From Cunninghamella blakesleeana (lineage: Eukaryota > Mucoromycota > Mucoromycetes > Mucorales > Cunninghamellaceae): a stretch of DNA of 64,000 bases. The translations under genes and the position numbers were made by a program. The DNA lies in the NCBI GenBank assembly GCA_017871115.1, contig JAFCIZ010000004.1:1092501-1156500 (forward strand). The letters run 5' to 3'. Below are positions 2,911 to 34,663 of this stretch, piece by piece; the first letter of the stretch is position 1, and every line of letters begins with the position of its first letter. Below the pieces are notes generated by a model. The model did no database searches, was not told where the DNA came from, and saw nothing but the letters and a program-made list of their open reading frames with translations.

Positions 2911-5900
2911 ATGTCAAATAATAACAGTGAACATGATTATACCAATTTATCTGTACAAAGTCTCGAAAATAGATCTACAATGCTCTCAAGAAATATTACG
3001 AAAAAACACGGTCCTGAAGATCTAGAGCAATCTCATTTCAACAAACGTAAAAGAACAGAAAATTTTTTCAACATAACAGAAGCTAAATTTAGAAATGTAT
3101 CGATAAATGATGATAATATGAATATAGATTTGAATACTACTATGAATAATAATAATAATAATGACACAAGCTTCAACAACAGCTCTAAGAATAATAATAC
3201 TAACAGTAATAATATAAACAACTTTATTAATACTAATACAAGCAACTATATTAATATTAATAATGTCAGTATTAATAAGGATAATATCAATAGTAACAAA
3301 AACAGAAATATAAGTGAAATCAATAATGACTTTAAAATGAATGGATTCGAGTCTTCACCAACCCAAAAACCTCAAAATGTCGTTGACAATACTCAAGAGC
3401 ATCATAAATTTAATATCATAGAAAATAATACACAGGATACCAACAATAGTGAAAGCACAACCGATCATTGTACTAATGAGCTTGTAAATCATACACATCA
3501 TAATGAGCATCGATCAAGGCGTTCAAATATTTGTACTGCTCCTTTAAAATCATTAATTGGGTTTAATAAAAAAAAACCAACACCAAAGATAATTATAATT
3601 GAAAAGGATAACAATGGTAAGTTCTATATTTATAATAAAAACAAAATAAAGAGAAATAAAAAAGTAGATCATTATTTACATAAAAAAACTATATTTTTAT
3701 ATATAAATATATCAGCACAAGAAAGTAAAATAGATAAATTGAATATGGATACAGTTTTAGATTTATTCTTAACTACTATTGATTCATTTTTTGAATGTAT
3801 ATTTAATGAGCAATCTATGGACTTTAACCTTGGGCAAATTGGCCAGGTGAATATTGAATATTAATAATAATAGTAATATGGAATCATGTGTTAACTAGAG
3901 TTGTTACTTTTATGCTTATTTTTTTTAAATAAATAGCAATGTCGTCATATATGCCAACAAATTGATGGTGACCAAATATATGTTAAAATACATAGTTCCT
4001 TAAACACTGCTATAGAAAATATTTGTTGTAAACTACGAATGTAAGTATTATTATTAATATAGTCGATTAACTTATGGTTTTTTACTTATTTATCAATATA
4101 ACTCTATTTTTATTTCATTTTTTAAATAATAGAGCACCATTCCAGAGCTCTGATTTTTTACAACATATGATTGAAACATGGGAAGATTATTATGGAAAGC
4201 TGGTAAAACTTTATAATAATAATAGCAATAATAATAATATTTAAGTATAAAGGGTAAATTATTCACGAACATATATATATATATATGATAACTATTGTAG
4301 AATGTTATAAATGAACTATTCAACCAAGTTAATAGCTCTTATGTTATACCAAAAACAAAATATTTATCGATCAAGTAATATATTTACATATATAATAATA
4401 ACAATAATAATAACAATATTAATAATAATGGAATGAAACAGATATTAATTGTTATTATTGTCATTGACATTAATACTGTTTAATTTTAGGGATATGGGAA
4501 AACAATTATATATAGAAGCTTTGATAAAAGATAAACTTATTAGAGAACGAACAATATCGAGCACTATTTATATATTTTCACGTTTAAGGTAATAATGTCC
4601 CTTGGTTACTTTTATTCTTATTTAAGTATAGATGTAAAAGTAGTAGTAACAATACTAATAGACCGATATATATTTTTATGATTAGATATCGCTATGAAGT
4701 TGATACTGATTTAATTCACTCAATAATGAAGTTTTTATACAAAGATCTATGTATATATACTGATTTATTTGAACAACGACTATCGAAATCAATAAAAGAG
4801 TATTATAATGAAAGAGCAATAAATGGAATTAATTCGCTTTCAACAGAGCTCTATTTAGCATTCAGTCTGGATTTAATTTTACGAGAAAGCTATTATGAAC
4901 GAGAAATATTTCACTTATATATACCTCCAAAGTTATCATTCACTGATATTGCAGTTAATGAATTATTAATTACTCATTTGGAACTCATATTACAAGGTAG
5001 TTATATATATTTAAGAATATTATTATGTAAATACGATAATTCCTCATATTAATAGTTCTTAATTATTTGTTCTATTATTTTGCTATTAATTTTATTTATT
5101 TTAAAAAAGAATTCGACTTATTATTAGAACATAAACCTTTATTAAAAGCTTTGTACAGATTTATACATCGATCAAAGGTTGTGGCTGAACTTCAATCTGC
5201 ACTAAGCAATTATGCAAAGGTATGTTAAAGAATGATGATAAAATATAAATTATATATTCGCGCACTAGCCTTTGTTTGCCAATATTAACACATACATACA
5301 AACACAAACCACACACACACACACACATATATATATATAGATCACATTATCAAAACGTATAGCATCTATTACAACCGATGATACAAATTTTGTTAATACT
5401 TGTCTAGAGTTCAAGTCATTTATGCATGGTATTATTGGAACATGCTTTAATAACGATGTAATGTTAATAAGTGCCTGTAAAGAAGTTATTAGAATAACTA
5501 TCAATAATCATATAAAATCAGCAGTATTATTAGCTTCCTACTTTGAAAGGGCACTGATATCTAATACAGTAAGTAATAAAAAAACTAAAAACCATCATCC
5601 AGTTATCATATTAAACTATATCAATTATGCATTTATTATATATATTATATGAATGAATTATTATAGCCTGAAAGGTTCAATTATTATATAGACAATGGTT
5701 TAGATTTATTTGGATATTTACAAGGTATTATATATTTATATAATGTTAAAGTATTTTACTTTTTAATCGTATATTAAATGTATCTTTCATTTCTCTCTTT
5801 TTAAAATATATATGTAGCAAAAGATATATTCAAGTCATGTTTTAAAGTTAATTTAGCAAGGAATTTATTAAGAAACTCCAATACTGAAGTCATTGATAAT

Positions 5901-7533
5901 GGGCTCACTATGATAAATAGATTAAGAGAATGTAATATAAATAGATACTCAAATGAAATAATTTCATATAAATAATATAATAGTGGTAACTAATCTTTTT
6001 TTTTTTTTTTTTAAAAAAAAATAAAATAAAAAAATAAATTAATATTTAGATTGTGGCAATGAATTTGTAAACGACCTGAATAATATGATTGAAGATATCA
6101 AATTATCTAAAGAATTAAATGAATCATTTAAAGTAAGTTTTTCCAATATTATATATACTTGTATGTATAAACATAAATGATTAATCTACTTGTATACATA
6201 TATTTAAATAGTTAACTCAGAAGAATGATGATGTTCTTAATGTTAATAAATTATTCGTAAACACATTGACTGGCGCTTTTTGGCCTTTTAAAGCTATAGA
6301 TGCAAAGGTTTATTTTCCAAACGAGGTAAGAGTAAGAATTAAAACAAAAATAATGATAAAAGCAACAGAGCTTAATTTGTTGAATATACTATAAATGTAT
6401 CTATATTATTATAATATTTTTAGTACTTGGACCTATTAAAGCTATATAAAGAATATTATCGAAGTGTATACCCCCATCGAAAATTAACTTGGATGAATTC
6501 GTTAGGAACATGTGAAATAGATGCCAATTTTCCATTATATAGCTTTAAAATGAAAACTACTTTATATCAAGCAACGATTTTACTGTTTTTTAATCTCAAG
6601 AATATACCGTTTTGGACTTGTTCGCAAATTGTTAACGCAACAAAAATAGGTAATGTATATGAATAGATAGGTAACTAAATACATAATTATAAGTAGTACT
6701 TACTCAATTAACTTTATTATTCTTATTTGTTAAGATAAAAATGTGGTCAAGCATGAACTCTCAACTTTAACGACAAGCAAAATGCCATTGTTAATTAGAA
6801 AAGATAGCAATGATGAATTAATTCTACCTTCAAGTGGAATTATTAAACCTATTAAAGATTCTGACCGATTTTATTTTAACTTTGAATTGAAAAATATTAA
6901 TAACATTAATATTTCAAATATTTTACATACACCAATTGAATTAATACCTTTCAATGATCAAGCTGTAGAACGCCATGTATTATTTGAAAGAAAAGATAAG
7001 GTAATATATATAAATATAGTAGTGAGTATAATAATAGTTAATAATGGTAATAATGATAATAAAAAGGATATAGCTACTTTTAGAAAAATATTAATATTAA
7101 CGCCTACATTATATTATATTTTATACATTATTCATTATATAGATTCAAGCGCTGATTTTACGAGTATTAAAAAAACACCGAGAGTTAAAATTAACAGAAC
7201 TAGTAAAAATAATGCAAGAATCACAAAAAAAGCTATATATATCTATTCAGGTAAAAAAAAATAAAAATATAAAAAAAATATAGTATGTACATTAAAATTG
7301 AAAATATAAAATTTATTAAACATATAAATATGCACTATTATAGTTTGAATCTATCATCAGCATATTAGATGACCTAGTTATACTGTAAGAATGTTTTTAT
7401 ATTATATAATGAAATACAACATAAAGCAGGGAAAAGGGTCTTATTAGGGTTATAACCTTATATCTTTTTTTATTTTTTTTATAGAGGGTATATTAAAAAA
7501 GATTCCAACGGTCGCTTACTTTATTCGGAATAA
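2911..7533 (+). CDS. Divergent cullin, nearest CUL4 type
   Basis: A multi-exon gene (a dozen or more short exons) encodes a cullin, the elongated scaffold of cullin-RING ubiquitin ligases. The first exon (2911 to about 3846) gives a roughly 210-residue Asn-rich N-terminal extension. Cullin repeats follow, including ENICCKLR (near 4035), NQVNSSYVIPKTKYLSI (near 4330-4375), DMGKQLYIEALIKDK (near 4495) and LLLEHKPLLKALYRFIHRSK (5115-5177). The cullin-homology domain includes FWPFKAIDAKVYFP, HRKLTWMNSLGTCE and MKTTLYQATILLFFN (6270-6600). The C-terminal winged-helix/neddylation domain is split over three exons. One holds IQALILRVLKKHREL (7143-7250), where the Lys after ILRVL corresponds to the NEDD8 acceptor. 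The last gives DDLVILGYIKKDSNG and ends at the stop at 7531-7533. The phase works through every junction I checked. Sequence divergence is high but the neddylation site and the RBX-binding end are kept, so it is probably functional. CUL4 type is judged from the DMG and IRERTISSTI segments. CUL3 is the alternative. Confidence 0.85.
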
Positions 7534-8738: not shown

Positions 8739-9106
8739 ATATAAATGTAAAAATAAAAAAGGTTTTGGATAGAATTAAATATGCATAAGATGATGATAAA
8801 ATGGCAAGTCTCTCTCTTTCTCCCTCTCTCTTATTATTTTTTTTCCTTTTTGAAGGGGTTATTTTTTTTTCTTACCAATCATCCTTTCTTTTTCATTTTA
8901 AACATAACTCCTTTTATATCATTAAAACCATTTTACCTTTTTATTCTTCCTTTTCTTTTTTTTTTTTATCATTATTATAATTATTATTATTATTGTTTGT
9001 TTGTTTATACTATTATTAGCAAATTGCTCTCTTATTTATTATTAAAAAAGTATACAAATTCATTAAACATATTTTTTTCACAACACTTCACTGCCTTTTA
9101 ATATAT
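8739..9106. promoter_or_regulatory. Pyrimidine-rich intergenic region, probable promoter
   Basis: This is the gap between the fRMsr gene and the following same-strand gene. It is a CT- and T-rich tract (TCTCTCTTTCTCCCTCTCTC near 8811 and long T-runs). It reads as a Phe/Tyr/Leu-rich open frame only because it is poly-pyrimidine. It is typical of a fungal upstream region. No defined factor site is identified. Confidence 0.4.
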
Positions 9107-11880
9107 ATGACAATGGAATTATTAACTATAATAAACCAAGAAGAAACAGAAAAAAATAAGGTAAAAAATCAATCATATATAATATTTTTATTTTTATTTT
9201 TATCTTGAATCTTTATTTTTAAAAAAAGGAATTTATTCATTTTGGAATGTTTGATTTCTTATTATTGATCATTCTTTAAATATATCGGCATTTAGTATTC
9301 TTTTTTATTCAATTTTTTTTTTTTTTCCTCTTCCTTTTTTTTTTTTTTAGGATCTTTCTTTTACATTTTATGAAATTGATAGAAAAAATATTACGAAATC
9401 CATTTCAACACCAATAATGAAAAAGGGGACAAAAGAAGTATATTCACAACAATTAATTCATGATGATCAAGATTTGAGTTATATATCTGAAGTAAATAAT
9501 CAACATTTTGAAAAAATGACAACTTATAGGACCAATAAAATACATGATATTCATAAGAAGAATACGAACGATAATAATAACAATGATACTTATGGCGATG
9601 ATAATGATATTATTACTACATGTTTGGATCCTAAAAAAAAATCAATTCGATCTCGTTTTAAAGATGTATTGAAAATATCGACTATTTACAACAAACCTAA
9701 TCTTCAACCAACTTGCTCTTCTCCTATTCCAAATACAAAACTAGCGACTCATTCTTCCCCTACTACGAAATTCACAATGAATACGGTACAAAAAAGACAT
9801 TCTACTACATCATCCTTATTAAATGGTCATTATACTAATAATAATAATAATAATAATAATAAATTTATCAATAACAGCAATATGAATACCAAAGTTGAAG
9901 ATGATGATGATCGCCCTATTTCTAAATTAAAAGCAAAGCATGAAGCTAAATCAAGATCTTGGCATTATACTGATAAAATTACACTATGGAATGATAGTAC
10001 ACCTTCATCACCACTTTCACCTACAGTTAGTAATAATAATAATAGTAGGCATCTCACTGCAAAGAAAAAAAGAAATTCTTTAACTGTAAACACAAATGAC
10101 CATTCACCCAATCCTTCTAAACAACCCACTTCACCATCAATTCATCAAACAAATAATAATCATAATAATAATAATATTCATCACGCTTTATTAAGCTCAC
10201 CTTTACCGTCTTCATCAACACAACCAATCCAACCTACTTCTTCTTCTTCTTCTCGACTTTTAACTGCATTTCAAAAATTACGACAACAAAAATCATCTAT
10301 TGATTCCCTTTCTCATGGAAATACATCAACAACTTCATTCATGTCATCCATAAGTACAAACCCATCTGTGAATAAAAATAACTCTACAAGCTTTGCTGAA
10401 AAAATTAAAATTAGATTTCAATCAAACAATAGCAATAGTAATAGTCCTCATAATAATAGCAATAATAATAATTTACATAATAAATCACAACAGCAAGGAT
10501 CAAGACTTCCAGCACCTATTAACACCTCTCCTAGTATTAAAAGAAGATCAACGGGCAATTCAAAAGGATCGATCGAATCTAGGCGTTTAGTAAGCCCAAC
10601 CTTCCATCTTCCAAATGACAATATGATTATACCGCCTTCCTCTTCTGTATCAACCTCTGCAGCAGCTTTGAATCGGACTTTAGCTCAGATTAATGCTCAA
10701 AAAAGTAAAAACCGACTTTCTGCTAAATCCTCTTCAACAACTACAAATAATCATAATCAATATCAGCATCAACATCATAGCTTATTACAAAAGAGGTGCT
10801 CATCACCACCACCATCACATAATATCATATTAAGTGCTATAGAACATAAAGAAAAGTCAATACGTCAATTTAACCTTAAACCAACAGTATCAGCTAGTTA
10901 TAAAGGTAATTGTAATAGCATATCATCCGTTTTTTTTTTTTTTTATTTTATAAAATATAAATTAACATGTAATTATTTTATTTCTATTTTTTTTTTTTTA
11001 AATATATATAGATCAACATATGTATCAACAATCTTATGCAGTAGCAACATCAGGGGTAAATTACTCTCGTGAAAAGGATAAAAGGCAGCCACGTCAAATA
11101 CAAAAAGAGCAGCGAATGCAAAGACAACAACATTTATATCAGGATTCATATACTAATGGAATAGAAGCACAAAAGGTACAAAATAATAATAAGGGCAATA
11201 GGGTACCAACTAGTTACCCTTTACATATTGATGCACAAGTTATGGAAGGAAATATGATTATATCACCTACATGTTCAACATCATCCAATATCTCTTCATC
11301 TACTGTATCTGTTGCATTATCATCTACCTCATCATCATCATCATCAACAACAACCACAACAAATAATAATAGTAGTAGTAGTAGTAATAGTGCTACGGGT
11401 CAACTTGACAATAATAACAATTATATATTGGGCAACTTGAAAAAAAATCAATCCAATTCATCATCATCTTCTTTGTCTTCATCTACTTCTTTATCGTCTG
11501 TGACATCTTCAACGTCAGTCAGTACTGTTAATTCAAAAAATCAAAATCAAAAACATCAACAAAATAATAATAATAATAATTTAGTAAAATCATCCATATT
11601 AGCTATTAAACCATCATTGAAAACTCTAGATAAAAAGAATAATAAAAAAAATCAGAGTAATAAGAAAAAGAAGAAACGTCAAGTTAGATTCATGTCAACT
11701 ACCCTAGTAGAAGATACATTTTCTAAGCATGATTATGATCGTTGTTCCGACCCATATGCAGTATGTACTAGGTTAACTTCTCTTCTTGCTCAACAAATTA
11801 AAGATGAATTAAATAATTTTAAATTACAAGAAATGATTGTTCATCATCAATCTCGTGGAAATACTCATTTCTTTTTATAA
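9107..11880 (+). CDS. Ser/Asn-rich protein with conserved C-terminus and PP1-docking-like motif
   Basis: Three exons join in phase: 9107-9160 (MTMELLTIINQEETEKNK), 9351-10905 and 11012-11880. The product is about 825 residues, mostly disordered Ser/Thr/Asn/Gln-rich sequence with many Ser-Pro sites (for example PSSPLSP). Only the last 75 residues look folded and conserved. There, KKKKRQVRF fits the [RK]-x-V-x-F docking consensus for protein phosphatase 1. It is followed by KHDYDRCSDPYAVCTRLTS, then AQQIKDELNNFKLQEMIVHH and SRGNTHFFL at the stop. I recall similar C-termini (YDR...LT..LA..IK.ELN.FK.EM.VH..S...THFF) in other fungal proteins, but cannot name the family with certainty. Judging by composition it may be a bud-neck or cortex scaffold such as the BNI4 type, but that is inference. 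The next gene downstream, on the opposite strand, also carries an RVxF motif. Confidence 0.75.
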
Positions 11881-27295: not shown

Positions 27296-27505
27296 TTATA
27301 AGCTTTGCCTAATTTTTTTATATAAAATAAATTTATTTATTACAAGTTTATCACTTTGCTTTTGCGCATCGGAGTATATTTTGCGCACCCAATAAATTTT
27401 TTCCAATAAATCGAGACCTTTTTCTTTTGAACAAAGTACATAATAAATGGAAATAGCTTGCCTTTTATTTTCAAGGTGGTTTTTTAGACAATTTTTGATA
27501 GACAA
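27296..27505 (-). CDS. Outward-facing small ORF within the left terminal repeat
   Basis: A 69-codon frame containing NHLENKRQAISIYYVLCSKE and GLDLLEKIYWVRK. The same peptide is encoded in the mirror position of the right repeat (34271-34378). Conservation between arms may simply reflect the inverted duplication. The composition is less biased than random AT-rich frames here, so it could be a fragment of a captured or ancestral coding sequence. It has no recognised family and no downstream exon that I can identify. Confidence 0.3.
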   Translation of the reverse strand: MSIKNCLKNHLENKRQAISIYYVLCSKEKGLDLLEKIYWVRKIYSDAQKQSDKLVINKFILYKKIRQSL

Positions 27506-27720
27506 AGTAAATTGAAAATAATATTATATTAACTCGTTTTAATCGTAGTTTTTTGTTAATAGTTATATTTCAATAATGTTTAAAATATTTAATAATGTTT
27601 TGAAGGTTTCAGCATAGGACTGCAATTAATATAACCTATTTTATATTTTAATGTCTTCATTTGAAAAAAATAAAAGACTTGGATAAACCAAGATCATACC
27701 TGAGCTTGAGTACATAAATA
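27353..27720. repeat. Left terminal inverted repeat of the 7-kb element
   Basis: Reverse complement of 34050-34419 with high identity through the inner 330 bases, for example GGACTGCAATTAATATAACC here and its complement near 34125-34145. The outermost 40 bases match less well: the right end carries a 17-A insertion where this end has a short AT-rich spacer. A TIR-internal open frame pointing outwards spans 27505-27296. Confidence 0.88.
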
Positions 27721-27724
27721 TATA

Positions 27725-27835
27725 AACTGACCACAGTAATAGACCATGGTCAGATCTTGGTTATATCTTAGCTTAAACATATGAACATATAAAATGACCA
27801 CGGTAAAAGACCTTGGTCAGACCTGAGTTTGAATT
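27725..27835. repeat. Two satellite units upstream of the recombinase-like gene
   Basis: Two copies of the inverted-repeat motif (CTGACCACAGTAATAGACCATGGTCAG, here given as TGACCACAGT...ACCATGGTCA, and TGACCACGGTAAAAGACCTTGGTCA, here TGACCACGGT...ACCTTGGTCA) lie 80-190 bp before the ATG at 27917. They are the left-arm counterpart of the long array at 29850-34075. Being so close to the start codon, they may be promoter or recombinase-binding sites. Confidence 0.8.
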
Positions 27836-27916
27836 TCACCAACTATATTTATGTGAGAAAACAAAAAAAAATTACAAAAAAAAAAATGGAATCTTTCTTT
27901 CTAATAATAATAAAAA

Positions 27917-29294
27917 ATGACCAGCAGTATTAGCTACAATCAAGCACTTTGTATTTTTTTTCAATTTAAATATAATGAAGAAAATGTAATAAAAGCAAAA
28001 AAAAAATTTGAAGCTTTTATTGATGAATATGATATATGTTATTTAACCGATCCAAAAGTACCTGTAATGGTGTTAAAAACAAGAATCTATGGCAATCCAT
28101 TCCTATTTAAAGAATATATCTCTGTCAGTAATAGTGCGAACTTAGAGGATATTGGTCACAATGAAATTTTATTAAGTAAGATTGTAAATTATTATTCAAT
28201 TTCTTAGAACTAATAGAGTTCTTTAATATTTATATATATATAGAAACTAATGAACAAGTAGTAAAATTTATTAATGAAGTTTACGATCCTGAAGCTAATT
28301 TCTCCTCTGATCTGTATACATCCCAAACGATTACTCTTAAAGAACTCTTTATAAATGTATTAAAATATTCTACTTGCTTTGAAAACAAAACGTTAAACAG
28401 CTTTGCTTCTTTTTGTGGAAAGAATACTTTAAATTTTATGAAGAATGATAACGCTAAAAAATCGCGTATTAATATTAATGGCTCATATTCTCGTATTTGG
28501 AATGTCTTTGTATTGAATCAGGAATTACATAGTAATATTTATATCAATATATATATGCTTTCGATTTTTTTATTTTATTCTAATCAAGCTATTATTTATA
28601 GGTAAAATAGTGAATAATATAGTAAAATACTCTGAAATATACCACAGTTTCATTAATGACCAGAAAAACTTAGGCGTAGAAATTATTGGTTATGCACGAA
28701 AATCACCTGGATCTGAAAAAAAATCGGTAAGAGAAAAGCTCCTTAACAAAATGGTGGAAAAATTAAAAGAGCGTTCATTGGTAGAAAAAGTTTTTGTTTC
28801 TCCTTCATCAAATTCATCAACACCATTTAATGACCGTGACAAAGGGATTAAAGCAATGCGTGGTACCAATGGTACAATGATTGGTAAAAAATAATAATAA
28901 TAAAATAATACTAATAACCTAAGAAAAATAAATAACATGTTCAAATACAATTAGAGTTGCACTAACATGCTTGTATTATAGATTTAATTGACCATCTAGG
29001 CATAACAGAAAAAAACGTAATTTTGGTTGTGATCGATTATGCTGGCTTTTCTACAAATGTTGAAGATATAAGAAGCTTTTTATCGTAAGTAAAATATTAA
29101 TACTTTCAAAAAAAAAAAAATTGGCTAACCTGTATAATAGTTTTCATAAAAATATTATTAAAATAGTTGTTGATCGAGTTCCCATAACTTGTGAAATGGA
29201 AGTTTACGATTGTGAAGTACTAATAAAAGAGGAAGAAATTATAAACAAATTTGATTGTAGATCTGGTACGGGTCTGGTGCATCGATCCAGATAA
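27917..29294 (+). CDS. Serine-recombinase-like protein of the 7-kb element
   Basis: Five exons (27917-28175, 28244-28531, 28602-28883, 28982-29084, 29141-29294) sum to 1086 bases with matching phases, giving an intact 361-residue protein. Residues 1-200 look helical and may bind DNA. At about 208-217 comes VEIIGYARKS, matching the Y-x-R-x-S nucleophile motif of serine recombinases/resolvases (Ser about 217). REKLLNKMVEKLKERSLVEK, VFVSPSSNSS and FNDRD (about 258-262) follow, then NVILVVIDYAGFSTNVEDI (about 287-305) where resolvases have the beta-strand leading to LDRLxR. The DRLxR arginines are not present (DYAGF instead), so catalysis is uncertain. The last exon gives KIVVDRVPITCEMEVYDCE and ends HRSR. 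An N-terminal DNA-binding part before the catalytic fold recalls IS607-type TnpA order. I recall related YARKSP proteins as multicopy families in Mucorales, but that is memory, not a search. Confidence 0.72.
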
Positions 29295-29592
29295 TTAAAA
29301 TTCAACCAATAAACCAATTTATATCATTTTTAAATTTAATTCATTCTAGTATACTATCATATTTTATATTTTATATACTCTTATTGCCATTCTTATACCT
29401 CCCATATTGTATTTATACGAAGTTAATTTTAAATAAATAATTTTATTATTAAAGAATATCCACAAAAAAAAAAATTCTAATCAAAAATGGTAATGTAATT
29501 AAGTGTATCTGTTATTCCACTTTGTGATTAAGATAATGGATTTCATGACACAGCGTAGGAATGGTACTGAGAGAACTGGGTATAAATCAGTG

Positions 29593-29755
29593 TTTTTAAC
29601 ACCATTACAGGTACTTTTGGATCGGTTAAATAACATATATCATATTCATCAATAAAAGCTTCAAATTTTTTTTTTGCTTTTATTACATTTTCTTCATTAT
29701 ATTTAAATTGAAAAAAAATACAAAGTGCTTGATTGTAGCTAATACTGCTGGTCAT
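29593..29755 (-). pseudogene. Inverted, 5'-truncated copy of the recombinase-like gene
   Basis: Codons 1-54 of the gene at 27917 are repeated on the opposite strand almost unchanged, through VPVMVLKT. The match ends abruptly and the frame runs into unrelated sequence (LIYTQFSQ...). The upstream 100 bases, including the AATAATAATAAAAA leader, are also duplicated. This marks the inner breakpoint of the inverted duplication (28083 on the left arm, 29593 on the right). It has no later exons, so it cannot make the full protein. Confidence 0.9.
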
Positions 29756-29849
29756 TTTTTATTATTATTAGAAAGAAAGATTCCATTTTTTTTTTTGTAA
29801 TTTTTTTTTGTTTTCTCACATAAATATAGTTGGTGAAATTCAAACTCAG

Positions 29850-32800
29850 GTCTGACCAAGGTCTTTTACCGTGGTCATTTTATTTATTCATGTATTTAAG
29901 CTAAGGTATAACCATGGTCTTTTACCGTGGTCACTTTATATATTCTTATATTTAAACTTAGATATGACCACGGTCTGACCAAGGTCTTTTACCGTGGTCA
30001 TTTTATTTATTCATGTATTTAAGCTAAGGTATAACCATGGTCTTTCACCGTGGTCACTTTATATATTCTTATATTTAAACTTAGATATGACCAAGGTCTT
30101 TTACCGTGGTCATTTTATATATTCTTATATTTAAACTTAGATATGACCATGGTCTTTCACCGTGGTCATTTTATTTATTCATATATTTAAAATTAGATAT
30201 GACCATGGTCTAACCAAGGTCTTTTACCGTGGTCATTTTATTTATTCATGTATTTAAACTAAGGTATAACCATGGTCTTTTACCGTGGTCATTTTATTTA
30301 TTCATATATTTAGGCTTAGATATGACCACGGTCTGACCAAGGTCTTTTACCGTGGTCATTTTATTTATTCATATATTTAAGCTTAGATATGACCATGGTC
30401 TTTCACCGTAGTCATTTTATTTATTCATATATTTAAAATTAGATATGACCATGGTCTGACCAAGGTCTTTCACCGTGGTCATTTTATCTATTCATGTATT
30501 TAAGCTAAGGTATAACCATGGCCTTTTACCGTGGTCATTTTATATATTCATATATTTAAGCTTAGATATGACCACGGTCTGACCAAGGTCTTTTACCGTG
30601 GTCATTTTATCTATTCATGTATTTAAGCTAAGGTATAACCATGGTCTTTTACCGTGGCCATTTTATTTATTCATGTATTTAAGCTTAGATATGACCACGG
30701 TCTGACCAAGGTCTTTCACCGTGGTCATTTTATCTATTCATGTATTTAAGCTAAGGTATAACCATGGTCTTTTACCGTGGTCATTTTATATATTCATGTA
30801 TTTAAGCTTAGATATGACCACGGTCTGACCAAGGTCTTTCACCGTGGTCACTTTATATATTCTTATATTTAAACTTAGATATGACCAAGGTCTTTTACCG
30901 TGGTCATTTTATATATTCTTATATTTAAACTTAGATATGACCATGGTCTTTTACCATGGTCATTTTATTTATTCATATATTTAAGCTTAGATATGACCAC
31001 GGTCTGACCAAGGTCTTTCACCGTGGTCATTTTATCTATTCATGTATTTAAGCTAAGGTATAACCATGGTCTTTTACCGTGGTCACTTTATATATTCTTA
31101 TATTTAAACTTAGATATGACCACGGTCTGACCAAGGTCTTTTACCGTGGTCATTTTATTTATTCATGTATTTAAACTAAGGTATAACCATGGTCTTTTAC
31201 CGTGGTCATTTTATTTATTCATGTATTTAAGCTTAGATATGACCACGGTCTGACCAAGGTCTTTCACCGTGGTCACTTTATATATTCTTATATTTAAACT
31301 TAGATATGACCAAGGTCTTTTACCGTGGTCACTTTATTTATTCATGCATTTAAGCTTAGATATGACCATGGTCTTTTACCGTGGTCATTTTATTTATTCA
31401 TGTATTTAAGCTAAGGTATAACCATGGTCTTTTACCGTGGTCATTTTATTTATTCATATATTTAAAATTAGATATGACCATGGTCTTTTACCGTGGTCAC
31501 TTTATATATTCATATATTTAAACTTAGATATGACCACGGTCTGACCAAGGTCTTTCACCGTGGTCACTTTATATATTCTTATATTTAAACTTAGATATGA
31601 CCAAGGTCTTTTACCGTGGTCATTTTATATATTCTTATATTTAAACTTAGATATGACCATGGTCTTTCACCGTGGTCATTTTATTTATTCATATATTTAA
31701 AATTAGATATGACCATGGTCTAACCAAGGTCTTTTACCGTGGTCATTTTATTTATTCATGTATTTAAACTAAGGTATAACCATGGTCTTTTACCGTGGTC
31801 ATTTTATTTATTCATATATTTAAGCTTAGATATGACCATGGTCTTTCACCGTAGTCATTTTATTTATTCATATATTTAAAATTAGATATGACCATGGTCT
31901 GACCAAGGTCTTTCACCGTGGTCATTTTATCTATTCATGTATTTAAGCTAAGGTATAACCATGGCCTTTTACCGTGGTCATTTTATATATTCATATATTT
32001 AAGCTTAGATATGACCACGGTCTGACCAAGGTCTTTTACCGTGGTCATTTTATCTATTCATGTATTTAAGCTAAGGTATAACCATGGTCTTTTACCGTGG
32101 CCATTTTATTTATTCATGTATTTAAGCTTAGATATGACCACGGTCTGACCAAGGTCTTTCACCGTGGTCATTTTATCTATTCATGTATTTAAGCTAAGGT
32201 ATAACCATGGTCTTTTACCGTGGTCATTTTATATATTCATGTATTTAAGCTTAGATATGACCACGGTCTGACCAAGGTCTTTCACCGTGGTCACTTTATA
32301 TATTCTTATATTTAAACTTAGATATGACCAAGGTCTTTTACCGTGGTCATTTTATATATTCTTATATTTAAACTTAGATATGACCATGGTCTTTTACCAT
32401 GGTCATTTTATTTATTCATATATTTAAGCTTAGATATGACCACGGTCTGACCAAGGTCTTTCACCGTGGTCATTTTATCTATTCATGTATTTAAGCTAAG
32501 GTATAACCATGGTCTTTTACCGTGGTCACTTTATATATTCTTATATTTAAACTTAGATATGACCATGGTCTAACCAAGGTCTTTTACCGTGATCATTTTA
32601 TTTATTCATGTATTTAAACTAAGGTATAACCATGGTCTTTTACCGTGGTCATTTTATTTATTCATGTATTTAAGCTTAGATATGACCACGGTCTGACCAA
32701 GGTCTTTCACCGTGGTCACTTTATATATTCTTATATTTAAACTTAGATATGACCAAGGTCTTTTACCGTGGTCACTTTATTTATTCATGCATTTAAGCTT

Positions 32801-34075
32801 AGATATGACCATGGTCTTTTACCGTGGTCATTTTATTTATTCATGTATTTAAGCTAAGGTATAACCATGGTCTTTTACCGTGGTCATTTTATTTATTCAT
32901 ATATTTAAAATTAGATATGACCATGGTCTTTTACCGTGGTCACTTTATATATTCATATATTTAAACTTAGATATGACCACGGTCTGACCAAGGTCTTTCA
33001 CCGTGGTCACTTTATATATTCTTATATTTAAACTTAGATATGACCATGGTCTTTTACCGTGGTCATTTTATATATTCATATATTTAAACTTAGATATGAC
33101 CATGGTCTTTTACCGTGGTCATTTTATTTATTCATATATTTAAGCTTAGATATGACCACGGTCTGACCAAGGTCTTTTACCGTGGTCATTTTATCTATTC
33201 ATGTATTTAAGCTAAGGTATAACCATGGTCTTTTACCGTGGTCATTTTATTTATTCATATATTTAGGCTTAGATATGACCACGGTCTGACCAAGGTCTTT
33301 TACCGTGGTCATTTTATTTATTCATATATTTAAGCTTAGATATGACCATGGTCTTTCACCGTGGTCATTTTATTTATTCATATATTTAAAATTAGATATG
33401 ACCATGGTCTAACCAAGGTCTTTTACCGTGGTCATTTTATTTATTCATGTATTTAAACTAAGGTATAACCATGGTCTTTTACCGTGGTCATTTTATTTAT
33501 TCATGTATTTAAGCTTAGATATGACCACGGTCTGACCAAGGTCTTTCACCGTGGTCATTTTATCTATTCATGTATTTAAGCTTAGATATGACCACGGTCT
33601 GACCAAAGTCTTTCACCGTGGTCATTTTATATATTCATATATTTAAAATTAGATATGACCATGGTCTTTTACCGTGGTCATTTTATTTATTCATATATTT
33701 AGGCTTAGATATGACCACGGTCTGACCAAGGTCTTTTACCGTGGTCATTTTATATATTCATATATTTAAAATTAGATATGACCATGGTCTTTTACCGTGG
33801 TCATTTTATTTATTCATGCATTTAAGCTTAGATATGACCATGGTCTTTTACCGTGGTCACTTTATATATTCTTATATTTAAACTTAGATATGACCATAGT
33901 CTTTTACCTTGGTCATTTTATTTATTCATATATTTAAGCTAAGGTATAACCAAGATCTTTTACCATGGTCATTTTATTTATTCATATATTTAAGCTTAGA
34001 TATGACCACGGTCTGACCAAGGTCTTTTACCGTGGTCACTTTATATATTTATGTACTCAAGCTCAGGTATGATCT
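29850..34075. repeat. 56/67-bp satellite array with internal inverted repeats (about 70 units)
   Basis: Tandem units of about 56 bp contain TGACCATGGTCTTTTACCG followed by TGGTCATTTTATTTATTC, then an AT-rich spacer ending AAGCTTAGATA or AAGCTAAGGTA. A 67-bp variant carries an extra 11 bases (TGACCAAGGTC) inside the palindrome. Each unit contains a 10-bp inverted repeat, TGACCAYGGT...ACCRTGGTCA, with a short loop. Units are contiguous without unique spacers. The array degrades at its right end (33895-34075) as it joins the terminal repeat. Confidence 0.95.
30061..33010. repeat. Higher-order tandem duplication inside the satellite array
   Basis: A block of about 1.5 kb starting at 30061 is repeated from 31571. 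The pattern of 56- and 67-bp variants and rare single-base markers recurs in the same order. One marker, CATGGCCTTTTACC, lies at 30517 and 31960. Another, TTCATGCATT, lies at 31341 and 32784. The offset is about 1510 bp at the start and 1443 bp after the second copy loses one 67-bp unit. This points to unequal exchange of a large block of units. Confidence 0.85.
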
Positions 34076-34419
34076 TGGTTTATCCAAGTCTTTTATTTTT
34101 TTCAAATGAAGACATTAAAATATAAAATAGGTTATATTAATTGCAGTCCTATGCTGAAACCTTCAAAACATTATTAAATATTTTAAACATTATTGAAATA
34201 TAACTATTAACAAAAAACTACGATTAAAACGAGTTAATATAATATTATTTTCAATTTATGTTATCAAAAATTGTCTAAAAAAAACCACCTTGAAAATAAA
34301 AGGCAAGCTATTTCCATTTATTATGTACTTTGTTCAAAAGAAAAAGGCCTCGATTTATTGGAAAAAATTTATTGGGTACGCAAAAAAAAAAAAAAAAATA
34401 GGATACGCGAAAGCAAAGT
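34050..34419. repeat. Right terminal inverted repeat of the 7-kb element
   Basis: Mirror of 27353-27720. It contains the same small outward-facing frame (34271-34378, KKNHLENKRQAISIYYVLCS and onwards), here interrupted near the tip by a 17-A run at 34382-34398. The outermost matching bases are GCAAAGT at 34413-34419. Confidence 0.88.
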
Positions 34420-34663
34420 AAAAACCTGTATTATTATTATTATTATTATTGTTAAACAATATAATATCTAAAAAGAGTGGGGATAAAAGTGATAAATGAA
34501 TGAAATATATGTACATAAAATATAATATAATATAAACATCTTTTTTGTTTCAAAAAGAGGAATAATATTATAATAATGGAATGAATAAAATAAAAAAGAA
34601 TAATAAGCTATAATTACAATAAATAAATTTTCATATGGTAATTATTATTATTACTACTATTTT

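What the first reader, a model, noticed from the sequence alone, without database searches (positions are those of the whole stretch)
27340..34430. Asymmetric inverted-duplication element with satellite and recombinase-like gene
The two arms share, in mirrored order, terminal repeat, satellite, promoter and the first 54 codons of the gene. In the left arm the satellite is about 0.1 kb and the gene complete. In the right arm the satellite is 4.2 kb and the gene is cut. The whole sits cleanly between two housekeeping genes. Either it is a transposable element with a giant asymmetric TIR, or a smaller element suffered an inverted duplication with one-sided satellite growth. I know of no named element family with this plan.
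Basis: partly seen in the sequence, partly recalled or inferred. Interest (0 to 1): 0.9.

Follow-up and report, generated by a model that had tools for sequence, protein, structure and literature searches.

The report
Mirror-image gene pair with private satellite
This stretch of a Cunninghamella-like fungal genome is one of several diverged copies of a mirror-image unit in which one arm holds a long gene, predicted to make a recombinase-shaped protein, and the other arm holds a short open reading frame for only its first domain; the shared stretch matches far better within each unit than between units, so the short product likely acts as a built-in regulator of the long one.

The parts
27341..27342 (.). 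TA dinucleotide at left boundary (candidate 2-bp target duplication; could equally be the tip of the terminal repeat)
   Evidence: TA abuts the terminal repeat at all 8 ends compared (W, C2 outer, C2 inner, C1; C2 ends not independent)
27343..27690 (+). Left outer arm: terminal repeat CAAGTTTATCACTTTGCTTTTGCGCATC plus about 300 bp shared with the right arm
27684..27838 (+). Short left satellite, about three units, 4 TGWCCA sites on both strands
27789..28081 (+). Left copy of the 293-nt identical block (upstream region and codons 1-55)
27917..29294 (+). Main gene, predicted five exons (27917-28175, 28244-28531, 28602-28883, 28982-29084, 29141-29294), 361 aa: N-domain, middle part, predicted serine-recombinase-fold C-domain
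29543..29755 (-). Mini-gene: 70-aa N-domain-only open frame, convergent to the main gene, own C-terminus TLIYTQFSQYHSYAVS
29591..29883 (-). Right copy of the 293-nt identical block
29849..34072 (-). Expanded right satellite, 4.2 kb, upstream of the mini-gene; 139 TGWCCA sites on both strands
34073..34428 (-). Right outer arm and terminal repeat (reverse complement begins CAGGTTTTTACTTTGCTTTCGCGTATCC)
34429..34430 (.). TA dinucleotide at right boundary

Best explanation
The segment is one of at least four diverged copies, in one fungal genome, of a convergent inverted gene pair: a long gene whose product is predicted to end in a serine-recombinase-fold domain, and, in the opposite arm, a short open reading frame for its first domain alone whose product likely acts as the long protein's matched regulator. 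Shown: the shared plan, the open mini-frames, a matching short protein in another species, arm identity that stops near codon 54 within units, and satellites longer on the mini-gene side. Inferred from those: gene conversion between the arms re-matches the two N-domains, so that both keep recognising the same partner. Inferred only: the N-domain would bind the satellite (shared core TGWCCA) or the N-domain of the long protein; the mini-protein would compete there and damp the long protein; the enlarged array in front of the mini-gene would serve as a binding platform or sink. Whether the long protein still cuts DNA is open, because two usual active-site arginines appear to be missing. The TA-flanked terminal repeats suggest that this copy was once carried as a DNA transposon.
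Confidence: 0.5

Rival explanations
1. It is a foldback-type DNA transposon whose inverted arms have grown to include promoter and first exon; the mini-gene is a by-product of the arm and makes nothing useful.
For: TA-flanked terminal repeats shared with C2 and an unrelated C1 element; Galileo TIRs are known to recruit inner sequence and to expand tandem repeats (PMC3573991, abstract and section 7).
Against: Mini tails (codons 55 onward) look old, and the W tail is conserved in C. echinulata; the mini-frame is open in 6 of 6 convergent pairs (C2 counted twice), and it persists where the long gene is broken (L066) or reduced (L065). L061 and L062 did not turn up in the searches for the W-type ends.
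Confidence: 0.2
2. The inverted first exons serve at the RNA level: read-through of the long gene into the mini-gene's antisense would give a long hairpin that triggers RNA interference and silences the unit.
For: 293-nt perfect inverted arms about 1.5 kb apart and convergent genes with about 250 bp between their stops; Mucorales have RNAi (recalled).
Against: An RNA role does not need an open frame, a distinct C-terminus or protein-level similarity among short proteins of Lichtheimia, Sporodiniella and Cunninghamella; L062 arms are only 82% identical over the first 52 codons.
Confidence: 0.12
3. The gene pair is cargo carried by a non-autonomous TA-targeting (Tc1/mariner-like) transposon; its own function is unrelated to mobility.
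For: TA at all 8 ends compared; the genome gave 159 DDE_3 matches, nearly all of those listed without internal stops; an unrelated gene pair at C1:3588375-3594149 lies between similar ends; W-type ends were not found at L061 or L062.
Against: No DDE_3 element with these terminal repeats was found (limited sensitivity; the DDE_3 loci were not inspected one by one).
Confidence: 0.13
4. Two-protein selfish gene of poison-antidote type, with the long and short products sharing an N-domain that lets one neutralise the other.
For: Two matched proteins apparently kept matched by conversion; low-copy, fast-diverging, lineage-restricted family.
Against: No toxicity, drive or segregation evidence; the predicted C-domain fold is a recombinase fold.
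Confidence: 0.05

Closest known systems
Galileo and other Foldback-like transposons (P superfamily; Tetris, Mutator-type foldbacks)
   Same: Long inverted arms with internal tandem repeats, variable arm lengths, exchange of sequence among copies; transposase-binding sites inside the TIR repeats in Galileo (PMC3688188 abstract and discussion; PMC3573991 abstract and section 7; PMC4079207 abstract and one section).
   Different: Here the arms carry the upstream region and first coding exon, giving a second, N-domain-only gene; no THAP or DDE transposase matched the long gene; boundary TA rather than the 8-10 bp TSDs reported for Tetris.
IS607-family TnpA serine recombinases (bacterial; also in the yeast Saccharomyces kluyveri)
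   Different: IS607 lacks terminal inverted repeats and target duplications (PMC6188088 abstract); R68/R71-like arginines absent here; extra middle part; introns; mini-gene; it is unknown whether the N-domain is a winged helix.
P-element KP-type repressors
   Same: [quoted passage not shown] that KP keeps the N-terminal part is recalled).
   Different: KP comes from internally deleted copies; here the short gene sits in the other arm of the same unit, has its own tail and appears re-matched by conversion.

Membership tests
Serine recombinase superfamily | Catalytic-domain fold | tested here: met
   [not shown]
Serine recombinase superfamily | Nucleophilic serine and nearby Tyr/Arg (gamma-delta Y6, R8, S10; numbers recalled) | tested here: met
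   G-Y-x-R-K-S: Y and R invariant, S nearly so in 15 aligned sequences; Pro in Absidia P0003
Serine recombinase superfamily | Second arginine pair of the active site (gamma-delta R68 and R71 in DRLGR; numbers recalled) | tested here: not met
   The aligned stretch reads like D-Y-A-G-L-T-T-N; no member that covers it has Arg at either place; register set by sequence pattern, not by coordinates
Serine recombinase superfamily | DNA strand exchange activity | not testable with these tools
   -
IS607 family | N-terminal winged-helix DNA-binding domain | tested here: inconclusive
   N-domain model has H-H-b-b-H order but no supported match
IS607 family | No terminal inverted repeats | tested here: not met
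   W has inverted ends
IS607 family | Companion TnpB gene in many members | not tested
   -
Foldback/Galileo-like transposons | Long inverted arms with internal tandem repeats | tested here: met
Foldback/Galileo-like transposons | P-superfamily transposase (THAP plus RNase-H-like domain) | tested here: not met
   Pfam scan of the long gene to E 10 gives only DUF1548 at E 0.0074, below its cut-off; predicted C-domain fold is a different one
Tc1/mariner non-autonomous element | TA at insertion boundaries | tested here: met
   indistinguishable from a terminal TA
Tc1/mariner non-autonomous element | Terminal repeats shared with an autonomous copy | tested here: inconclusive
   DNA search with a C2 end found only C2 and W ends; C1 came from the pattern search; DDE_3 abundant but not linked to these ends
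KP-type truncated repressor | Protein of the N-terminal part only | tested here: met
   open frames of 70-89 aa and matching short proteins elsewhere
KP-type truncated repressor | Binds element DNA and represses the full protein | not testable with these tools
   -

The most novel reading that the evidence does not exclude
A new class of eukaryotic element, so far seen only in Mucorales: a self-matched effector-regulator pair on a DNA palindrome. A serine-recombinase-fold protein with a rebuilt active site and its own N-domain regulator are encoded in opposite arms, gene conversion between the arms keeps their recognition domains matched while copies diverge, and a fast-changing private satellite with a conserved core is their shared binding platform.
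Probability: 0.35. Interest if true: 0.88.

Novelty: new variant of a known kind. Interest (0 to 1): 0.72.

Why it matters
If the mini-gene regulates the long gene, the unit shows a way for a mobile or selfish gene to keep its regulator in register: put both recognition domains on the arms of a palindrome and let gene conversion copy one onto the other. It would also be a lineage-restricted eukaryotic protein family with a serine-recombinase fold but a changed active site, and a clean setting for asking why tandem satellites grow on one side, since four independent units show the same bias.

Tried and rejected
Assembly artefact or one-off duplication: rejected for the plan by recurrence in paralogs and by C. 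echinulata proteins. Rfam (gathering threshold) and tRNA scans of the window: nothing. Pfam on the long gene: only DUF1548, below its cut-off. Pfam Resolvase over the whole genome: no match in G000, although the control found it in 10 of 14 genomes, so that model does not see the family. PDB sequence searches: nothing relevant. Profile comparison with gamma-delta resolvase: E 1.3e-4, probability 54, but in my reading the register is wrong after the first motif, so it was not used as evidence. N-domain fold search: no supported match, which neither shows nor excludes a DNA-binding fold. DDE_1 search silent, with a silent control. One-mismatch hits to the terminal motif: one search listed 35 hits, 6 exact and 29 with one mismatch (control pattern 15); 2 of the 29 are the W right end and the C1 left end; 3 others were fetched and do not look like ends (12, 17 and 19 of 31 bases); the other 24 were not followed. 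The P0002 row was out of register and is not used. L066 arm figures are one codon out of register (the ATG is at 5385) and are not used. The 80 bacterial resolvase loci were not used. Literature: eight searches; among the papers listed (the best 7 to 15 of 7 to 1,341 matching papers, by title and start of abstract) none describes this plan or a Mucorales serine-recombinase-like family; serine recombinase together with Mucorales gave 0 papers. Most subscription journals are not held, so this does not show that it is unpublished.

Full report
WHAT IS THERE. The window is G000:C4:1092501-1156500, in a 31.9-Mb, 12-contig genome. The nearest proteins to the main gene are from Cunninghamella blakesleeana (87% identical over 86% of it) and C. 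echinulata (89% over 72%), so the host is likely a Cunninghamella; the assembly is unnamed. The unit runs from 27343 to 34428 (7086 bp), with TA on both sides and ends CAAG...CCTG. Left arm: terminal repeat, about 300 bp of shared sequence, a short satellite, upstream region, main gene. Right arm, mirrored: terminal repeat, the same shared sequence, a 4.2-kb satellite, upstream region, mini-gene. A block of 293 nt (128 upstream of the ATG plus 165 coding) is identical in the two arms and ends abruptly at codon 55. The main gene reads as five exons with GT-AG introns, 361 aa. This is a prediction, but three paralogs can be spliced into open frames at matching positions.

IT IS A FAMILY WITH A FIXED PLAN. 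A whole-genome search with the main protein and with a mini-protein found diverged relatives. Of 19 N-domain matches listed, 18 have E below 1e-3. Twelve of these form six convergent pairs: W; C12:22 kb (L061); C12:65 kb (L062); two on C2 at 551 and 556 kb (L063); and C5:3798 kb (L066). The other six are single; four of the six have stops inside the match. The long gene was spliced into an open frame at W, L061, L062 and one C2 copy; the two C2 copies are halves of one palindrome (3538 of 3540 aligned bases identical), so there are four independent intact units. At L066 the long gene is broken. The four long proteins are 114-164 of 338-360 aligned residues identical to each other. Each unit has its own satellite, upstream of the genes: W 4224 against 155 bp, L062 1106 against 82, L063 670 against 163, L061 181 against 128 (lengths as I cut them; arrays). 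The longer array is on the mini-gene side in 4 of 4. That is a small number; chance alone would give 1 in 16.

THE MINI-GENE. The four independent intact units have an open frame of 70 (W), 83 (L061), 80 (L062) or 74 (L063) codons in the right arm, starting at the mirrored ATG. At L066 an 89-codon mini-frame is open beside the broken long gene. L065 is a solo frame of 78 codons. In other species: P0024 from C. echinulata is 70 aa and 64/70 identical to the W mini-protein, own tail included; it is listed on a contig of 9,094,544 bp, the same length as that of P0002, the W main-gene homologue. P0020 from C. echinulata is 75/78 identical to L065 and ends at the same residue. P0022 (unnamed source) matches the L066 mini at 82/89. 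A search with five mini-proteins found 23 proteins at E <= 0.01 among 220 candidates; 15 of the 23 are 70-91 aa, including Lichtheimia (76 aa) and Sporodiniella (74 aa). Caveats: this search can only see short proteins (the longest found has 147 aa), some of these (P0021, P0023, P0025) look like first exons of long genes rather than mini-genes, and outside this genome I could not see where any of them lies relative to a long gene.

CONCERTED EVOLUTION. One search splits the shared exon. Codons 1-54, main against mini within a unit: 54/54, 52/53, 37/53 and 45/52 residues (W, L061, L062, L063); first 52 codons at DNA level 100, 98, 82 and 91%. Between units the same stretch is 51-68% identical in DNA. 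Codons 55-67: 5/10, 5/13, 5/13 and 5/13 within units, which is about what is seen between units (main-main 4-7 of 13; mini-mini 1-7 of 10-13). So the mini tails look as old as the family, while the first 54 codons have been re-matched within each unit, most simply by gene conversion. Two residues agree: S3 and V52 are in both W copies, while C. blakesleeana main and C. echinulata mini have N3 and A52, and C. echinulata main, annotated from residue 51 on, has A at 52 (read). dN/dS of the arm pairs over 70 codons is 0.28-0.47. Values below 0.5 suggest constraint on both copies, but conversion blurs this test.

THE N-DOMAIN AND THE SATELLITE. The mini-protein model (P0028, 25 sequences) is confident (pLDDT 88, pTM 0.73) and small: two helices, a beta hairpin, one helix. 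It matches nothing in the PDB with support. The four satellites have different units but share one hexamer core, TGWCCA (TGACCA in W, TGTCCA in the other three), in one orientation in L061-L063 and both in W. Among 1000 sets of shuffled units, 5 shared any comparable core. This is after-the-fact support for a common binding site, not proof.

ENDS. The W-type terminal repeat with TA was recognised only at W, at four places around the C2 palindrome and, more diverged, at both ends of C1:3588375-3594149 (L069), which holds an unrelated inverted gene pair; 24 one-mismatch motif hits were not followed. The genome gave 159 DDE_3 matches, so a Tc1/mariner-like enzyme might move TA-flanked elements in trans, but no such enzyme with these ends was found. 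Whether the gene pair moves itself, is moved, or no longer moves is open.

HOW IT MOST LIKELY WORKS. Shown: a conserved convergent pair with an N-domain-only partner, arms whose identity far exceeds that between units, and one-sided satellites. Inferred: conversion keeps the N-domains of long and short protein matched, which makes sense if both must meet the same target. The closest functional parallels are the KP repressor of the P element (PMC7776569, passages), Galileo transposase sites inside TIR tandem repeats (PMC3688188, abstract and discussion) and IS607 TnpA filaments on direct repeats at one transposon end (PMC6188088, abstract and passages). On that basis the mini-protein is proposed as a matched competitor that damps the recombinase-like protein, with the satellite as platform or sink. 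Confidence: plan 0.95, mini-gene a real protein gene 0.85, regulation of the long protein 0.5, satellite as its binding platform 0.35.

Noticed in passing
L063:2244-9552 (G000:C2:550243-557551): Near-perfect 7.3-kb palindrome (3538 of 3540 aligned bases identical between arms) holding two copies of the unit in opposite orientation, with W-type terminal repeats at its outer ends and again about 500 bp inside.
   Followed up: partly
L069:2076-7850 (G000:C1:3588375-3594149): Another TA-flanked element with similar terminal repeats, carrying an unrelated gene as a 1.29-kb inverted duplication (99% identical arms); no Pfam match for three of its open frames.
   Followed up: partly
L063:2430-2609 and 9167-9346: A 60-aa open frame between outer and inner terminal repeats; the only matches to it in this genome were these two places.
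   Followed up: partly
G000:C12 (117.5 kb): Small contig rich in this family (7 of the 18 N-domain matches with E below 1e-3) and holding several DDE_3 transposase matches; could be an accessory or subtelomeric piece.
   Followed up: no
window 29849-34072: The satellite has internal duplications at lags of 1443 and 2953 bp, pointing to recent block growth on top of unit-by-unit growth.
   Followed up: partly
L061:2682-3436 and 8902-9633: A direct repeat of about 750 bp (83% identical) flanks the C12:22-kb unit on both sides, each with traces of a small open frame.
   Followed up: no
L062:3562-3657 and 6636-6734: The L062 unit has short inverted ends of its own (77% identical, partly satellite), different from the W-type ends.
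   Followed up: no
G000, whole genome: 159 DDE_3 (Tc1/mariner-type) matches, a lower bound, nearly all of those listed without internal stops and many clustered on C2:1.36-1.48 Mb and C3:0.15-0.34 Mb.
   Followed up: no
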